From assembly GCF_030380815.1 (NCBI RefSeq), contig NZ_JAUDUY010000003.1, positions 1 through 64,000 on the forward strand: a stretch of 64,000 bases of DNA. The letters are read 5' to 3'. This document shows positions 5,950 to 11,564 of the stretch, piece after piece; within the stretch, counting starts at the first letter, position 1, and every line of letters begins with the position of its first letter. The DNA is from Robiginitalea aurantiaca. GTDB taxonomy: Bacteria > Bacteroidota > Bacteroidia > Flavobacteriales > Flavobacteriaceae. The position numbers and the translations under genes were made by a program. Under the pieces are notes generated by a model. The model saw only the letters and a program-made list of their open reading frames with translations. It was not told the origin of the DNA and ran no database searches.

Positions 5950-7347
5950 TTAGTTGGCGGGAAGGATGTTCTGATTCACCCGGAAGAAGTTCTCGGGATC
6001 ATATGCCTTCTTGATTTGAGCAAGCCTTTCGTAGTTCCCTTTATAACTTGCCTTGATCCGTTCCTGACCTTCGTCCATAATAAAATTCAGGTAGGCGCCG
6101 CCGGTGGAATAAGGATGCAATGCATCCCAGTATTCCTTGCACCAATCTGTGATTTTTTCTGCGTTTGCAGGATCCGGATCCACGCCGACAATAACACCAG
6201 CGTATTTGGCATCCCTATTTGCCCAGGGCGTATCTTCCTTTCCAACCCTGCTGGCCGCACCACTAATGGGGTAGAGGTGCATTTGCGAAAGCGGGGTTGG
6301 AATTTTAGATCCGTACTCTAAATGTCCGGAGCGCACTTCAGGCCCGAGCTCTTTAAAATAGTCGGCCCTCCAGTACCACTGCAACCCATGCGGGAGCATG
6401 CCATCGAACAGCGTTTGAATGGATGGATAGGGCATTTCTCCTACATGCGCAAAAATGGGATTCATGGCATGAACGGGAGCAAAAATTTCGTCCATTTTCT
6501 CTGGGTCCCCTACGTAGGCCCAAACAATTCCGCAGAACTTTTTGTTATGCAATTCTTCCGGGAATGGAGCTCCGGGGATTACCATTGTGGCTATGAAGCC
6601 GTTAAGTTCATCTGGGGCATTATTGATAAAGGTATGATACCACTCCATCACCTCCTCAACCCGTTCAATGGGCCACAGCGTGGGACCGCCGATAATATTC
6701 TTAACCGGATGTGCCTGGAATTTGAAAGAAGTGACTATGCCAAAGTTTCCGCCCCCGCCACGGATGGCCCAGAATAAATCAGCATTCCGCTCGGCATTTA
6801 CGGTTACTATGGACCCGTCTGCCAGCACCATGTCGGCCTCGAGTAGGTTGTCTATAGTAAGGCCGTACTTTCTGGAAAGATGTCCGACCCCTCCGCCTAA
6901 TGTAAGGCCGCCAACGCCGGTGGTTGAAATGATTCCAGCCGGAACGGCCAGCCCAAAGGGATGTGTTGCATGATCCACCTCTCCCCATAAATTCCCTCCG
7001 CCAACACGGACAGTACTGTTTTCGACATCCACATGGACGAATTTTATACCGGACAAGTCTATGACCATGCCTTCATCGCAGAGTCCAAGCCCGCCCCCGT
7101 TGTGTCCTCCGCCTCTCACGGCCACTAAGAGATTATTCTCCCGCGCAAAGTTCACAGCGTACTTTACATCGGCAGCATCTACACACATCACAAACATTCC
7201 CGGGCGCTTGTCGATCATTCCATTGTACACCTTCCGCGTTTCGTTGTACTGCGCATCATTGGGGAAAATAATTTCTCCCCTCACCTGAGCTTTCAGAGCG
7301 TCAAAAGCAGACGCCTCTAATTCCTTAACTTTTGTTTTTGCTGACAT
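5950..7347 (-). CDS. FAD-linked oxidoreductase, berberine-bridge (BBE) family
   Basis: A flavin-dependent oxidase/dehydrogenase of 465 residues without a signal peptide. The N-terminal FAD_binding_4 (PCMH) domain spans about residues 40-215. It contains RGGGHNGGG with His82 at the position that covalently binds FAD in BBE-like enzymes, and a glycine-rich stretch (TTGVGGLTLGGG). The second covalent residue, a Cys in the latter stretch, is absent, so a single 8-alpha-histidyl link is expected. The C-terminus (YDPENFFRVNQNI) is the BBE motif. Such enzymes oxidise alcohols or sugars with O2 or another acceptor; the substrate here is unknown. It lies 84 bp downstream of the ferredoxin-cyclase-globin gene on the same strand and may be co-transcribed with it. 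A strong terminator follows. Confidence 0.9.
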   Translation of the reverse strand: MSAKTKVKELEASAFDALKAQVRGEIIFPNDAQYNETRKVYNGMIDKRPGMFVMCVDAADVKYAVNFARENNLLVAVRGGGHNGGGLGLCDEGMVIDLSGIKFVHVDVENSTVRVGGGNLWGEVDHATHPFGLAVPAGIISTTGVGGLTLGGGVGHLSRKYGLTIDNLLEADMVLADGSIVTVNAERNADLFWAIRGGGGNFGIVTSFKFQAHPVKNIIGGPTLWPIERVEEVMEWYHTFINNAPDELNGFIATMVIPGAPFPEELHNKKFCGIVWAYVGDPEKMDEIFAPVHAMNPIFAHVGEMPYPSIQTLFDGMLPHGLQWYWRADYFKELGPEVRSGHLEYGSKIPTPLSQMHLYPISGAASRVGKEDTPWANRDAKYAGVIVGVDPDPANAEKITDWCKEYWDALHPYSTGGAYLNFIMDEGQERIKASYKGNYERLAQIKKAYDPENFFRVNQNILPAN

Positions 7348-7431: not shown

Positions 7432-8751
7432 CTATGCATAGGCATGCCCTTTCATTGTGTCAATCACGAAATCCAGGGCAGTATTCCAGGCCTCAAGGGT
7501 TCGTTTGGTTTTGTTTTCACCCAGTACTTGCTCGATAGTTTGCATCATGGCCAGCTTTACCACCGGGTAGTACTCTGCTTTCACGCCATACTGAACATGG
7601 CTCCGGCCCAATTTTGCCAAACCCTTTTTAAGGTGTTCCGGCCTGGAAAAGGAATACACAATCCCGCCCAGCATATGGGTAAGTAGGCGTCCCTGTTCAG
7701 TCATATTGTTGCGGAAAAGTGCCCTTACCTGGGGAGCCAGAGTAAATACCTTGTTATAGAAGATGCTTGCGAATTCTTCCTCGTCATCGAGCATTGTGTT
7801 CATGGAAGATTGCAGTTCCAATTGAAGGTCCATATCCTTAAAACCAACAAGCTCATGCAGACGTAAAGGGTCGTCTTTCCCGGCCAATTTATTCAGGAAG
7901 GTTTTTCCTGTTACAACCGTGTCTGTATCAACGTTATTCAGCACGGTTTCAGATATCAGAATATCCGTATCGGTAACCTTGGTTTCGTTTTGGATTCTGC
8001 TCGCTACGTTTACCGGGTCCCCGATTACGGAGAATTGTTTATGTGTTGGATGGCCGAGATGCCCTATAAATGCCGTCCCGAAATTGATGCCGATACCCGA
8101 TTTCAATTTAACGTCGATATCCTTCAGATCAGTCCGGTTCAGGGATTCAAGCGCATATTGCATTCCCAGGGCAGCGCGTATGGCATCTTCACAATTCTTT
8201 TTTCCTGATCCGCCGGTGGTTCCAAAAACCCCGATAATCTCATCCCCGACGTATTGATAAATGATACCATTGTTCATCAGGATAGGCTCGCCCAATGCGG
8301 TATAAAACCGGTTGAGCATATAGGCGATGTCAAAGTTGAGGTTATGAGAAGAGAGGTGGGTGAAATTTCGGAGATCACAAAAGAGTATGGCTATGGGACG
8401 CTGCTCCGCGCGCCCTGTGGGGGCTAATTCCTTCTGTAAGTTGTTTACCTCGCTATTGGACCAGATCAAGCGTTGAAGTGTCACATCACCTTTCGGACGT
8501 GCCTGACATGCCAGTCGAATAGAGGGATCCCATTTTCTGGCGTGACTGCTGCTAATTTCAAAAGCGGATTTCGGGCTTAGGTTCTGAATGCCTTCCAGGA
8601 TTCGCACCCTGCACGTCGTGCATACCCCATTTCCCCCGCATTCGTGAAGGTGTGGAATTTTATTGTCTATAGAGATGTCGAGAAGGGATTTAGAATTGGA
8701 ATCCGAAGAGACTTCCTTTTGTATTGCTGCGTATGTTATCTTGTTGGTCAT
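7432..8751 (-). CDS. 2Fe-2S ferredoxin / class III nucleotide cyclase / globin fusion protein
   Basis: Three domains lie in 439 residues. Residues about 1-95 are a plant-type ferredoxin fold with cluster ligands C38, C44, C47 and C82. Residues about 117-255 are a class III adenylate/guanylate cyclase domain: metal Asp126 (ILFCDLRNFT) and Asp170 (YVGDE), plus transition-state Asn248 and Arg252 (PVNVASR). Residues about 320-434 are a flavohaemoglobin-like globin: FY at 331-332 (Tyr332 as likely B10), Phe346 (CD1), Gln353 (likely E7) and proximal His385 (RSHVQYGV). All key residues are present, so a haem- and cluster-regulated synthesis of cAMP or cGMP in the cytoplasm is the natural inference. 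At the base-selecting positions I see Gln166 and Ser241 instead of Lys/Asp, so substrate choice is uncertain. It is divergent from a two-component system and upstream of an FAD oxidase gene. Confidence 0.92.
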   Translation of the reverse strand: MTNKITYAAIQKEVSSDSNSKSLLDISIDNKIPHLHECGGNGVCTTCRVRILEGIQNLSPKSAFEISSSHARKWDPSIRLACQARPKGDVTLQRLIWSNSEVNNLQKELAPTGRAEQRPIAILFCDLRNFTHLSSHNLNFDIAYMLNRFYTALGEPILMNNGIIYQYVGDEIIGVFGTTGGSGKKNCEDAIRAALGMQYALESLNRTDLKDIDVKLKSGIGINFGTAFIGHLGHPTHKQFSVIGDPVNVASRIQNETKVTDTDILISETVLNNVDTDTVVTGKTFLNKLAGKDDPLRLHELVGFKDMDLQLELQSSMNTMLDDEEEFASIFYNKVFTLAPQVRALFRNNMTEQGRLLTHMLGGIVYSFSRPEHLKKGLAKLGRSHVQYGVKAEYYPVVKLAMMQTIEQVLGENKTKRTLEAWNTALDFVIDTMKGHAYA

Positions 8752-8801: not shown

Positions 8802-8809
8802 CAAAGTTA
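8802..8809 (-). promoter_or_regulatory. Putative -7 box of the cyclase-globin gene
   Basis: TAACTTTG on the minus strand is a perfect TAnnTTTG match, 50 nt before the ATG at 8751. A TTG at the -33 distance is not seen, so the promoter may depend on an activator. Confidence 0.4.
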
Positions 8810-8879
8810 CTTTTGAATGTTTTGGGATTTTACACCCAAATGAGTGATTTTTAAAAATAACCTTTTTCTATGAGGCTGC

Positions 8880-8897
8880 ATCACACAATTGTGTGAT
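8880..8897. promoter_or_regulatory. Perfect 18-bp palindrome, candidate operator
   Basis: ATCACACAATTGTGTGAT is identical on both strands. It lies in the divergent intergenic region, 23 bp before the -33 element of the kinase gene promoter and about 70 bp upstream of the likely -7 box of the cyclase gene. Its position and symmetry suggest a site for a dimeric regulator serving one or both genes. The half sites face the opposite way to a CRP site (TGTGA-N6-TCACA). Confidence 0.6.
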
Positions 8898-8920
8898 ACT
8901 GATAATCATTGAATTAGGTG

Positions 8921-8950
8921 TTGACGGCGCCAAAGAATTCGATAATTTTG
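8921..8950 (+). promoter_or_regulatory. Bacteroidota-type promoter of the histidine kinase operon
   Basis: TTG (8921-8923), a 19-nt spacer and TAATTTTG (8943-8950) match TTG-N19..21-TAnnTTTG exactly. The leader to the ATG at 9035 would be about 78 nt. Confidence 0.7.
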
Positions 8951-9034: not shown

Positions 9035-10906
9035 ATGAGAACTATAAGGGTATTCATCATTCTGTTCCTGGCGGGTTTCAACTTTATGGCCAGTCAGTCA
9101 AGGGAGTTGGACAGCCTGAGTGCAGCTGTAAAATTGATGCCGGAAGACTCGTTGAAATGCGAGACCTATCTGAAGATGGCTTACCTGTTCTATTCCGGAG
9201 ATGCCTCAGAAATGTATGCCCATAAAGCACTGGACCTGGCAAAACAGTTGAACAGCCCTGGGCTCGCAGGGAAGGCCTTTCACAGATTGGCATGGTCCTA
9301 TGGGCTGGATGAAATGGATAAGAAAACAGCATATTTGGATAGTGCCGCAGCCAGCTTCACTAAAATCAATGACGCTTACGGTCTCGGCAATGTTTTTGAT
9401 ACCAAAGGGACGATCTTAATGATTTATGGCTCCATTGAAGAGTCCTTTGAATCGTATCAAAAAGCCTATGACTATTTTTCCAGCATTCCTGATGAGGAGC
9501 GTAAAGCAGGGGTTTTGAACAATTGGGCAATTGCTGAATACACAGGTGGAAATACCCAGGCTGCATTGGAAAAATACCAAACTGCCCTGGAGTACAGGCT
9601 TAAGGAAGTCCCGGTATCGCACATTGACATTGCCAGGTTATATCAGGGAATGGGAGAGTGCCATCGACTAAATGGAAATCTGGATTTGGCGGCAACCAAC
9701 TACCTGAAAGGATATGAACATCGGAGTGCAGCGGATAATATCGGCGTGGTGGAATCCATGATGAGCATCGCATCTATGATTTATGAGGCCGCTGAAAAAC
9801 AAGAGGACACTACTTCCATATTGGCCCTGTTAAACACTTATGGGTTCCAAAGTTCTCAGGACCTTATCGAAAAATCCGAAAAGACCCGTGGTGTGTCGGA
9901 TCGACCCGGACTGCAGAACGAAATCATGGATGTAAAGCGACAAAACTACCTGCTAAAGGGAGATTTTGAAGCGGCTTACGGACTGCTGGAGAAACAAAAG
10001 GAATATCAGGAACAGAATAAATTAAAAGAAAGCAGTCTGGAAGCCCTGGCCGACATGAAGGTCAGGTTTGAAAAGGATCAATTGAAGATCGAGCTGTTAG
10101 AAGAAGAAGTAATGAACCAAAAAACCCAGGAAAGCGTGAACATGTTATTATTTTCTTTAGTAGGATTATTGTTGATTTCGCTAGCCGGATTCCTCTATTT
10201 CCAGAATCGAGTCAAATCAGGTAAACTGGAGCTTAATGAAGCGCACAGGGAACAACAAATCATATCGATGCGTTCCATGCTGGAAGGTCAGGAAAAGGAG
10301 CGATCCCGAATTGCGCGCGACCTTCATGATGGTTTGGGGAACCTACTGTCAAGTCTGAAGGTAAATTTTGGGAGTCTCCAAATAAATTTTGACGATAAAA
10401 ATTCAGAAAGAATTTATGGTACTGCCAGTGAGATGATCGATGAGGCGTGTTCTGAGGTCAGAAAGATCGCCCACGAAATGATGCCGCAATCCCTAAGAAA
10501 ATTGGGACTTCGAAAGGCGGTTGAAGACCTGGTTGTGAAAATGGACGCCGTACATGAATTCAGTGCGGAGCTGCATGTTCACGGAACAGAACGGACTTTT
10601 GATGACAATACCAATGTGATGTTATTCCGGATTATTCAGGAAGCGTTGAATAACATTGTAAAATACGCCCAGGCACACGAAGTCTCCGTGCAGATGGTCT
10701 ATGGGGACGAATGGTTCGATCTCACTATAGAAGACGATGGGATCGGTTTTGATCCGCACAGCGCAGATGTGGAGAAGGGCATGGGGTTAAAGAGCATAGC
10801 TTTTAGAACGGAATTTATCGGGGGCACCTACGATTTGAACAGCAGAATAGGCGTCGGCACTTTAGTGACTATAAATATCCCGCTAAGTGAGATAAGCGAA
10901 GTCTAA
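9035..10906 (+). CDS. TPR-containing sensor histidine kinase (HisKA_3 / NarL-type)
   Basis: The kinase half of a two-component system, 623 residues. A signal peptide (about 1-20) is followed by a periplasmic TPR-rich helical region (about 40-330), a coiled coil, and a single membrane segment (about 370-390). The cytoplasmic part has a HisKA_3 dimerisation helix with phospho-acceptor His431 (RIARDLHDGLGN) and a HATPase domain with N box (EALNNIVKYA), G1 (DDGIGF) and G2 (GMGLKSI). This architecture is common in Bacteroidota. The response regulator gene follows after 16 bp. The signal is unknown; the divergent cyclase-globin gene suggests a redox or gas stimulus, but this rests on position alone. 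Confidence 0.93.
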   Translation: MRTIRVFIILFLAGFNFMASQSRELDSLSAAVKLMPEDSLKCETYLKMAYLFYSGDASEMYAHKALDLAKQLNSPGLAGKAFHRLAWSYGLDEMDKKTAYLDSAAASFTKINDAYGLGNVFDTKGTILMIYGSIEESFESYQKAYDYFSSIPDEERKAGVLNNWAIAEYTGGNTQAALEKYQTALEYRLKEVPVSHIDIARLYQGMGECHRLNGNLDLAATNYLKGYEHRSAADNIGVVESMMSIASMIYEAAEKQEDTTSILALLNTYGFQSSQDLIEKSEKTRGVSDRPGLQNEIMDVKRQNYLLKGDFEAAYGLLEKQKEYQEQNKLKESSLEALADMKVRFEKDQLKIELLEEEVMNQKTQESVNMLLFSLVGLLLISLAGFLYFQNRVKSGKLELNEAHREQQIISMRSMLEGQEKERSRIARDLHDGLGNLLSSLKVNFGSLQINFDDKNSERIYGTASEMIDEACSEVRKIAHEMMPQSLRKLGLRKAVEDLVVKMDAVHEFSAELHVHGTERTFDDNTNVMLFRIIQEALNNIVKYAQAHEVSVQMVYGDEWFDLTIEDDGIGFDPHSADVEKGMGLKSIAFRTEFIGGTYDLNSRIGVGTLVTINIPLSEISEV

Positions 10907-10922
10907 TATAAAAGGGAATCAC

Positions 10923-11564
10923 ATGGAAAAGATTAAGGTACTATTGGCAGATGATCATCAGATCATGCTCGATGGCCTGAAAGCAATCCTTACTAAAGAC
11001 AGGTCATTAGCAGTGGTGGGTACGGCCAAAAATGGACTTGAGGTCCTTGAATTCCTTAAAAAAGAACCCGTGGATGTCCTGCTACTCGACCTGCAGATGC
11101 CTGTAATGGATGGCCTGGAGACTACCATGCATGTCAAAAAGGCCTATCCGGAGGTAAAGATTATCATGCTGACCACCAATGACGAGGGTAGCATTATCAC
11201 ATCTTTGTTTAAGGTTGGGGCTAGCGGATACTTGCTGAAAAATGCGTCCAAAGAATATCTGTTAAAAGGCATTAAGGACGCTCATGAAGGTAAAAAAGTG
11301 ATCAGCTCCCATCTTGCCGAAAAGATCATTGAAAGCCTGACAGAAGACCCCAAGCCAAAAGAGGGAACGAGACCTATGATTACCAAGAGGGAAATTGAGG
11401 TTTTAAAACTAATCGCAGAGGAGTATACCACCCAGGAAATCGCAGATCAATTATTTGTAAGCACCAATACGGTGGCAACCCACAAAAGAAACCTCTTTGT
11501 AAAGATGGACGTCAAAAATTCCGTGGGTATGATCAAAAAAGCGGTAGACTGGGGACTCATTTGA
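10923..11564 (+). CDS. NarL/LuxR-family response regulator
   Basis: The protein has 213 residues and is the partner of the preceding kinase. The receiver domain (1-120) has the acidic pair D10-D11, phospho-acceptor Asp56 (LLLDLQMP), Thr in IIMLTTNDE and Lys in YLLKNAS. The C-terminal LuxR-type helix-turn-helix (about 145-210: MITKREIEVLKLIAEEYTTQ, then VATHKRNLFVKM) binds DNA. Phosphorylation should promote dimerisation and promoter binding. The 18-bp palindrome upstream of the kinase gene is a possible target, which would make the system self-regulating. It is convergent with the DUF302 gene 10 bp away. Confidence 0.95.
   Translation: MEKIKVLLADDHQIMLDGLKAILTKDRSLAVVGTAKNGLEVLEFLKKEPVDVLLLDLQMPVMDGLETTMHVKKAYPEVKIIMLTTNDEGSIITSLFKVGASGYLLKNASKEYLLKGIKDAHEGKKVISSHLAEKIIESLTEDPKPKEGTRPMITKREIEVLKLIAEEYTTQEIADQLFVSTNTVATHKRNLFVKMDVKNSVGMIKKAVDWGLI

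What the first reader, a model, noticed from the sequence alone, without database searches (positions are those of the whole stretch)
7432..8751. Ferredoxin-nucleotide cyclase-globin fusion protein
One 439-residue polypeptide carries a 2Fe-2S domain (C38, C44, C47, C82), a class III cyclase with both metal Asp residues and the Asn/Arg pair, and a globin with proximal His385 and a flavohaemoglobin-like pocket (Tyr332, Gln353). All three seem intact. Established knowledge: globin-coupled and ferredoxin-coupled cyclases each exist, but I do not recall a characterised protein with all three. Inference: second-messenger synthesis gated by cluster redox state and by O2 or NO at the haem.
Basis: partly seen in the sequence, partly recalled or inferred. 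Interest (0 to 1): 0.82.

Follow-up and report, generated by a model that had tools for sequence, protein, structure and literature searches.

The report
Ferredoxin-cyclase-globin sensor enzyme
A bacterium of the phylum Bacteroidota carries one protein that joins an iron-sulphur domain, a cyclic-nucleotide-making enzyme and a haemoglobin-like domain; it is real and well conserved, and probably turns redox and gas conditions into a cyclic-nucleotide signal, although I found no test of that.

Summary
The minus-strand ORF 7432-8751 (439 aa) has Fer2, class III cyclase and globin domains, each over Pfam's cut-off. It is not a chance or assembly fusion: all 42 proteins scanned (window plus 41 relatives) have all three, and in 52 aligned rows the four cluster cysteines, both metal aspartates, Asn248, His385, Tyr332 and Gln353 are invariant. 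Relatives found are Bacteroidota, including one of another class at 38% identity. It most likely works as a soluble cyclase with two metal-cofactor inputs; this is inferred, nothing was measured.

Refinements: the usual purine-specifying lysine is an invariant Gln166, so cAMP versus cGMP is undecided. Haem plus Fe-S plus cyclase has a parallel in S. meliloti CyaC, which binds two haems in a membrane domain and, as I recall, a cluster.

New: in 17 loci the gene lies head-to-head with a sensor-kinase gene over a promoter with a conserved palindrome (exact in 15, 1-2 mismatches in 2; at best 5-8 mismatches upstream of 33 other loci). Verdict: new variant of a known kind, interest 0.55.

The parts
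7432..8751 (-). Three-domain protein, 439 aa: Fer2 / class III nucleotide cyclase / globin
8491..8718 (-). Fer2 [2Fe-2S] domain (residues 12-87), ligands C38, C44, C47, C82
   Evidence: Pfam PF00111 E 2.8e-9; four Cys invariant in 52 of 52 rows
8428..8457 (-). Helix between Fer2 and cyclase (residues 99-108), possible signal linker
   Evidence: helix in the model; E101, L105, Q106, E108 invariant in 52 rows; role inferred
7927..8400 (-). Class III cyclase domain (residues 118-275): D126, D170 metal; N248, R252 transition state; Q166 at the purine-specifying Lys/Glu position
   Evidence: Pfam PF00211 E 3.7e-15; Foldseek match to Spirulina CyaC 1wc3, TM 0.86 over the target; alignment to 2w01 and 6fht
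7453..7761 (-). F-type globin domain (residues 331-433): Y332 (B10), Q353 (E7), H385 (F8), Y395 (G5); helix labels recalled
   Evidence: Pfam PF00042 E 1.9e-12; best solved relative 3wfw E 1.8e-18, same residues aligned; only PF00042 match in its own genome
8880..8897 (.). Perfect 18-base palindrome ATCACACAATTGTGTGAT in the divergent promoter, likely regulator site
   Evidence: 16-base core exact in 15 of 17 cassette loci, 1 and 2 mismatches in the other 2, 5-8 at best in 33 other loci; single exact copy in the genome
8802..8849 (-). Cyclase promoter block AATCAC-N7-GGTGT-N22-TAACTTTG (last part like the Bacteroidota -7 element, recalled)
   Evidence: strict pattern in 14 of 17 cassette loci, 0 of 33 others
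8904..8950 (+). Mirror-image block toward the kinase gene, AATCAT-N7-GGTGT-N21-TAATTTTG
   Evidence: strict pattern in 5 of 17, loose in 9 of 17 cassette loci, 0 of 33 others
9035..10906 (+). Divergent TPR sensor histidine kinase (HisKA_3)
   Evidence: Pfam; kept beside the cyclase
10923..11564 (+). NarL/LuxR-type response regulator
   Evidence: Pfam; directly behind the kinase in 15 of the 17 cassette loci
5950..7347 (-). FAD-binding oxidoreductase (FAD_binding_4 + BBE) 84 bases downstream, probably co-transcribed
   Evidence: Pfam; downstream on the same strand in 16 of 52 loci

Best explanation
It is a soluble, probably homodimeric class III nucleotide cyclase with two metal-cofactor inputs in one chain. 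The N-terminal [2Fe-2S] domain reads redox state and passes it to the cyclase through a short conserved helix. The C-terminal globin (Tyr B10, Gln E7, His F8) binds O2 or NO and changes cyclase output from the other end. The product is a cyclic purine nucleotide, cAMP more likely than cGMP, read by the cell's own cNMP-binding proteins. In the window's lineage, expression is set together with a neighbouring two-component system through a shared divergent promoter. Shown: the domains, their ligands, their co-conservation, the locus and the promoter footprint. Inferred: cofactor binding, dimerisation, product, direction of gating, and identity of the regulator.
For: Three domains over cut-off, in all 42 proteins scanned and in a 38%-identical relative from another class of the phylum, L085. 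Cofactor and catalytic residues invariant in 52 rows, R252 excepted. Low dN/dS in all three domains in the one pair usable throughout. Predicted model at mean pLDDT 83.5, cyclase closest to CyaC and Cya2. Six cNMP-binding matches in the same genome, though such proteins are common: 10 of 14 control genomes have them. Fer2 directly before a class III cyclase is a recurrent module without globin: four proteins of 301-308 aa in Bacteroidota and two rhizobial-group plasmid proteins of about 580 aa. Redox control of S. meliloti CyaC is described in PMC10463352 (passages seen). In globin-coupled sensors, ligand or redox state of the haem alters output activity (PMC12805357, passages seen).
Against: I found no biochemistry for it. 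The globin lies after the cyclase, an unusual order for a sensor (recalled). Q166 is neither the Lys of 6fht nor the Glu of Cya2. The cyclase-globin joint (276-308) is the least conserved part, mean pairwise identity 0.40, which is odd for a signal path. pTM is 0.68, so domain placement is uncertain, and the 50 Foldseek rows shown are all cyclases, so the fold search lends nothing to the Fer2 and globin parts. The kinase and FAD gene are kept only in part of the family; elsewhere only groups of two or three loci share a neighbour.
Confidence: 0.6

Rival explanations
1. Internal electron transfer: the [2Fe-2S] domain mainly re-reduces the globin haem, making a ferredoxin-fed NO dioxygenase or a self-resetting gas sensor; the cyclase reports haem turnover.
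For: The globin has Tyr, Gln, His and Tyr at positions that I label B10, E7, F8 and G5 from recall, as flavohaemoglobins do; they align with the same residues in 3wfw. It matches the flavohaemoglobin model at E 1.4e-12, far below its cut-off. A review names ferredoxin reductases as likely donors for single-domain globins (PMC3820574, passages seen). It is the only PF00042 match in its genome.
Against: No FAD/NAD(P)H reductase domain in the chain; the two domains are separated in sequence by the cyclase; Fer2-cyclases without any globin exist, so Fer2 has a use independent of the globin. Cluster-haem distance could not be measured.
Confidence: 0.2
2. Only one cofactor is a true input; the other is structural or stabilising, for instance the globin as a dimer clamp or the cluster as a rigid fold element.
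For: Fer2-cyclases persist without globin; globin dN/dS is somewhat higher, 0.072 against 0.036-0.042, in one pair.
Against: Ligand residues of both domains are invariant in 52 rows, including the pocket residues Tyr332 and Gln353 that a purely structural globin would hardly need.
Confidence: 0.15
3. A pyrimidine cyclase of an anti-phage Pycsar system.
For: PADLOC PycC models match at up to E 2.8e-18, better than the Pfam cyclase model.
Against: The same models match the five Fer2-cyclases used as controls with best E-values from 2.6e-26 to 1.1e-19, so they do not discriminate; no TIR or cyclic-nucleotide effector domain among ten neighbouring ORFs scanned with Pfam; four residues before the second metal Asp, CTP-type EaPycC has Arg142 (PMC11224242, passages seen) and here it is Gln.
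Confidence: 0.02
4. Frameshift, assembly or gene-calling artefact joining separate genes.
For: None found.
Against: Same architecture as an open frame in independent genomes.
Confidence: 0.01

Closest known systems
Sinorhizobium meliloti CyaC and rhizobial-group Fer2-cyclases
   Same: CyaC: haem and class III cyclase in one chain, redox-sensitive (PMC10463352 passages); its binuclear Fe-S cluster is recalled from Wissig et al. 2019, which is not held and is not mentioned in the passages seen. Rhizobium jaguaris and Phyllobacterium plasmid proteins have Fer2 directly before the cyclase.
   Different: CyaC's haems sit in a six-helix membrane domain, no globin; here the chain is taken up by three soluble-type domains and the haem domain is a C-terminal globin.
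Stand-alone Fer2-cyclases of Bacteroidota (L014, L015, L086, L087)
   Same: Same N-terminal two-domain module, 30-33% identical.
   Different: 301-308 aa, end after the cyclase; Asp or Glu, not Gln, at the purine position.
Leishmania HemAC-Lm
   Same: Haem-based soluble adenylate cyclase, described as an O2 receptor (PMC12755159, passage seen).
   Different: Eukaryotic; that it has a globin and no Fer2 domain, and its domain order, are recalled, not tested.
Globin-coupled sensors (HemAT, BpeGReg, PccGCS)
   Same: Globin in one chain with a signalling output.
   Different: Sensor-type globin, N-terminal (recalled); outputs named in the passages seen are kinase, chemotaxis, diguanylate cyclase and STAS domains (PMC12805357, PMC3287990); an older review also names guanylate cyclases and phosphodiesterases (PMC3820574).
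Globin-Roadblock protein (3wfw) and hemoglobin-like flavoprotein (3s1i)
   Same: Closest solved relatives of the globin domain.
   Different: The molecule names show no cyclase or ferredoxin partner.

Membership tests
Class III nucleotide cyclase | Catalytic fold and two metal Asp | tested here: met
   Pfam over cut-off; D126, D170 in 52 of 52; fold match 1wc3
Class III nucleotide cyclase | Transition-state Asn and Arg | tested here: met
   N248 52 of 52; R252 51 of 52, one Lys
Adenylyl cyclase (canonical) | Lys at the purine-specifying position | tested here: not met
   Q166 in 52 of 52 rows; Lys in 6fht, Glu in the guanylyl cyclase 2w01 at this column
Guanylyl cyclase (canonical) | Glu at that position | tested here: not met
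   Gln
Plant-type [2Fe-2S] ferredoxin domain (Fer2) | Domain match and four Cys ligands | tested here: met
F-family (flavohaemoglobin-like) globin | Globin match, proximal His F8, Tyr B10 and Gln E7 (labels recalled) | tested here: met
Flavohaemoglobin NO dioxygenase | C-terminal FAD/NAD(P)H reductase domain | tested here: not met
   protein ends after the globin; NF009805 47.2 bits against a cut-off of 432, globin part only
Globin-coupled sensor | N-terminal S-family sensor globin | tested here: not met
   C-terminal globin; Protoglobin model matches only 1 of 42 members, E 5.2e-4, against 42 of 42 for Globin
S. meliloti CyaC-type redox cyclase | Six-helix di-haem membrane domain | tested here: not met
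   the chain is taken up by the three domains and the long modelled helices fall within them or their linkers; no membrane predictor was run
Pycsar pyrimidine cyclase | CTP/UTP-specific cyclase beside a cyclic-pyrimidine effector | tested here: not met
   effector not seen among ten neighbouring ORFs; models non-discriminating; nucleotide specificity itself not testable here
Any of these | Bound haem, bound cluster, product, gating | not testable with these tools
   needs purified protein

The most novel reading that the evidence does not exclude
A cytosolic coincidence detector unlike described cyclases: a [2Fe-2S] cluster sets the redox state of a C-terminal globin haem in the same dimer, so the cyclase fires only for a given combination of redox poise and O2/NO, with a nucleotide choice set by an unusual invariant Gln; a redox-gas-to-cyclic-nucleotide pathway spread through Bacteroidota that I did not find described.
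Probability: 0.25. Interest if true: 0.8.

Novelty: new variant of a known kind. Interest (0 to 1): 0.55.

Why it matters
Cyclic-nucleotide signalling in Bacteroidota is, to my knowledge, little studied. A single soluble protein that joins a redox cluster, a gas-binding haem and a cyclase, with the ligands kept in distant lineages, offers a direct handle on how these bacteria sense oxygen, NO and redox state. It also gives a natural test of whether a globin can control a cyclase from its C-terminal side, and a possible part for engineered gas sensors. The shared promoter offers a candidate regulator and binding site.

Tried and rejected
Pycsar: PADLOC PycC models matched, but five Fer2-cyclases taken as controls matched as well or better; rejected. 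Q166 as a mark of the three-domain family only: rejected, since Gln also stands there in 15 of 37 other rows, one of which is the three-domain L085. A spread into Alphaproteobacteria suggested by L074 ('Thalassovita'): the phylum sample drawn around its genome returns the same places as the window's phylum, so I take the record name to be wrong. Single origin of the fusion: the cyclase tree needs 2 changes, long branches meet, and 33% of bootstrap trees give one side of a branch; undecided. Spread on plasmids: of 555 plasmid records with a match, none covers 80% of the query. Structure-to-structure realignment was unavailable, and no coordinates were in the Python box, so cluster-haem distance was not measured. 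Presence outside Bacteroidota was not tested by profile: the species-wide scan uses exact short patterns, and the whole-genome samples were of this family and phylum. Literature: searches listed no paper on this three-domain protein in the open library held, which lacks most subscription journals; of the papers listed I saw only passages of those cited.

Full report
Observation. The ORF at 7432-8751 is on the minus strand and encodes 439 aa. Pfam finds Fer2, Guanylate_cyc and Globin in that order, all over the curated cut-off.

Is it real? In the own genome (3.46 Mb, 52 contigs) there is one copy and no other PF00042 globin match. In a sample of 199 genomes of the same family, 9 (own included) have a near full-length relative, 54-80% identical apart from the window itself. 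In a sample of 395 genomes of the phylum, 3 (own included) have one, and 2 have only the Fer2-cyclase part, at E 1e-30 or better. A scan of 84,980 species genomes gave 43 loci of 44-92% identity, all matching the query nearly end to end: among them Flagellimonas/Allomuricauda, Maribacter, Robiginitalea, Eudoraea, Robertkochia, Algoriphagus, Lewinella and other Saprospiraceae, Cytophagales and one Bacteroidales MAG. That scan uses exact short patterns and finds close relatives only, so it does not show absence elsewhere. All 42 members of alignment A1 (the window plus 41 of those 43 loci; L050 and L070 left out for in-frame stops; the eight relatives L006-L013 not included) carry all three Pfam domains. 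L085, from another class of the phylum, has them at 38% identity.

Constraint. In 52 rows, 87 positions are invariant. They include all four Cys, both metal Asp, N248, H385, Y332, Q353, F346 and Y395, but not R252 (one Lys). Mean pairwise identity of 50 rows (near-duplicates L006 and L007 dropped): Fer2 0.59, Fer2-cyclase linker 0.61, cyclase 0.68, cyclase-globin joint 0.40, globin 0.58. dN/dS could be had for all three domains only against L035 (0.036, 0.042, 0.072); the other six pairs tried were mostly saturated at silent sites.

Fold. AlphaFold2 on A1 gives mean pLDDT 83.5, pTM 0.68. Foldseek puts the cyclase next to Spirulina CyaC (1wc3, TM 0.86 over the target) and the guanylyl cyclase Cya2 (2w01); the 50 rows shown are all cyclases, so they confirm that domain only. 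Domain placement within the chain is not well fixed.

Substrate. At the column where 6fht has Lys and the guanylyl cyclase 2w01 has Glu, this family has Gln in 52 of 52 rows; the partner position is Ser 32, Ala 11, Thr 7, Cys 1, Gly 1. Among 37 other rows of the comparison (L085 included) the same column has Gln 15, Lys 14, Glu 4, Asp 4, so Gln is common among these mostly Bacteroidota cyclases and does not by itself define this family; in the seven Fer2-cyclases without globin it is Asp, Glu or Lys. A Gln at this position in mycobacterial Rv0386 is recalled, not checked. I lean to cAMP, at low confidence.

Locus. I loci the cassette: the window, L035, L036-L049 and L073. In them the gene stands head-to-head with a TPR histidine kinase gene; in L035 only a 204-aa start at the contig edge is seen, judged a kinase start by eye. 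A NarL/LuxR-type regulator lies directly behind the kinase in 15 of the 17; the contig ends in L035, and in L073 my ORF caller chose another frame there. By cluster, the kinase occurs in 20 of 52 loci (near-duplicates L006, L007 and the looser L050, L051 included) and the regulator in 17 of 52 (L050, and in L073 a more distant gene, included). An FAD-binding oxidoreductase follows on the same strand in 16 of 52. The cassette lineages are Flavobacteriaceae and Algoriphagus going by the record titles. Elsewhere only groups of two or three loci share a neighbour. So the protein's function does not depend on this neighbourhood.

Promoter. Between cyclase and kinase lies a perfect palindrome, ATCACACAATTGTGTGAT (8880-8897). 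Its 16-base core is exact in 15 of 17 cassette loci and has 1 and 2 mismatches in the other two; upstream of the 33 other loci (near-duplicates L006 and L007 not counted) the best match has 5-8 mismatches. The own genome has one exact copy and two more places with 2 mismatches; the backwards control pattern counted 1 on each strand. Toward the cyclase, AATCAY-N7-GGTGT-N20-23-TANNTTTG is found in 14 of 17 and 0 of 33; the mirror image toward the kinase in 5 of 17 (loose form 9 of 17) and 0 of 33. TANNTTTG fits the recalled Bacteroidota -7 element. The simplest reading is that one regulator, perhaps the adjacent response regulator, sets both genes together (inference). These loci are related, so the footprint shows conservation, not independent gains.

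Mechanism. Best reading: soluble homodimeric cyclase, [2Fe-2S] input in front through a conserved helix, globin input behind. Support comes from invariance of the ligands, and by analogy from S. meliloti CyaC (redox-controlled, two haems; PMC10463352 passages) and globin-coupled sensors (PMC12805357 passages). Against it: no assay, odd domain order, and a weakly conserved cyclase-globin joint. The main rival is cluster-to-haem electron transfer.

Known or new. Fer2-cyclases are common: 555 plasmid records match some part of the query, none over 80% of it, and the 30 listed places begin at residue 2-22 and end at 268-334. Haem-regulated soluble adenylate cyclase is known from Leishmania. A 2006 survey of signalling helices lists a globin domain and NMP cyclases among its contexts, but the passages seen name no ferredoxin (PMC1592074). 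Searches listed no paper on the three-domain protein, in a library that lacks most subscription journals. I rate it a new variant of a known kind.

Noticed in passing
8802-8950: Divergent promoter with a perfect 18-base palindrome and mirror-image promoter blocks, conserved with the kinase cassette; regulator unknown.
   Followed up: partly
5950-7347: FAD-binding/BBE oxidoreductase downstream of the cyclase resembles bagremycin/ferroverdin FAD-dependent oxygenases (E 4.4e-64, 216.6 bits, far below the model's cut-off of 800). Its link to the cyclase is unexplained; it is missing behind the cyclase in L038, L045 and L073, which keep the kinase.
   Followed up: no
L061:7323-7925, L072:7107-7709, L076:2431-3033: In three Lewinella/Saprospiraceae loci a TetR-type regulator gene abuts the cyclase gene on the same strand (TetR_N E 3e-7 for the L061 copy). 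S. meliloti CyaC also works with a TetR-like partner, CycR (PMC10463352 abstract passage); chance or parallel is open.
   Followed up: partly
L053, L057, L067 (Robertkochia): A cupin-domain gene on the opposite strand follows the cyclase in three Robertkochia loci (Cupin_2 E 5.9e-14 for the L053 copy).
   Followed up: no
L074: Public MAG named Thalassovita (Alphaproteobacteria) behaves as Bacteroidota: the phylum sample around it returns the same places as the window's phylum.
   Followed up: yes
PADLOC PycC models: PycC profiles match ordinary Fer2-linked class III cyclases at E down to 2.6e-26, so such hits alone do not indicate Pycsar.
   Followed up: yes
L020, L024-L027, L030-L034: Bacteroidota cyclases with 'QYLGD' (Gln instead of Lys/Glu at the purine position) form a supported group of 10 in the tree (98/100); their product is an open question.
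   Followed up: no
L102, L103: Cyclases with QFVGDE and a TGDTVNTGKRIE motif, also with Gln at the purine position.
   Followed up: no
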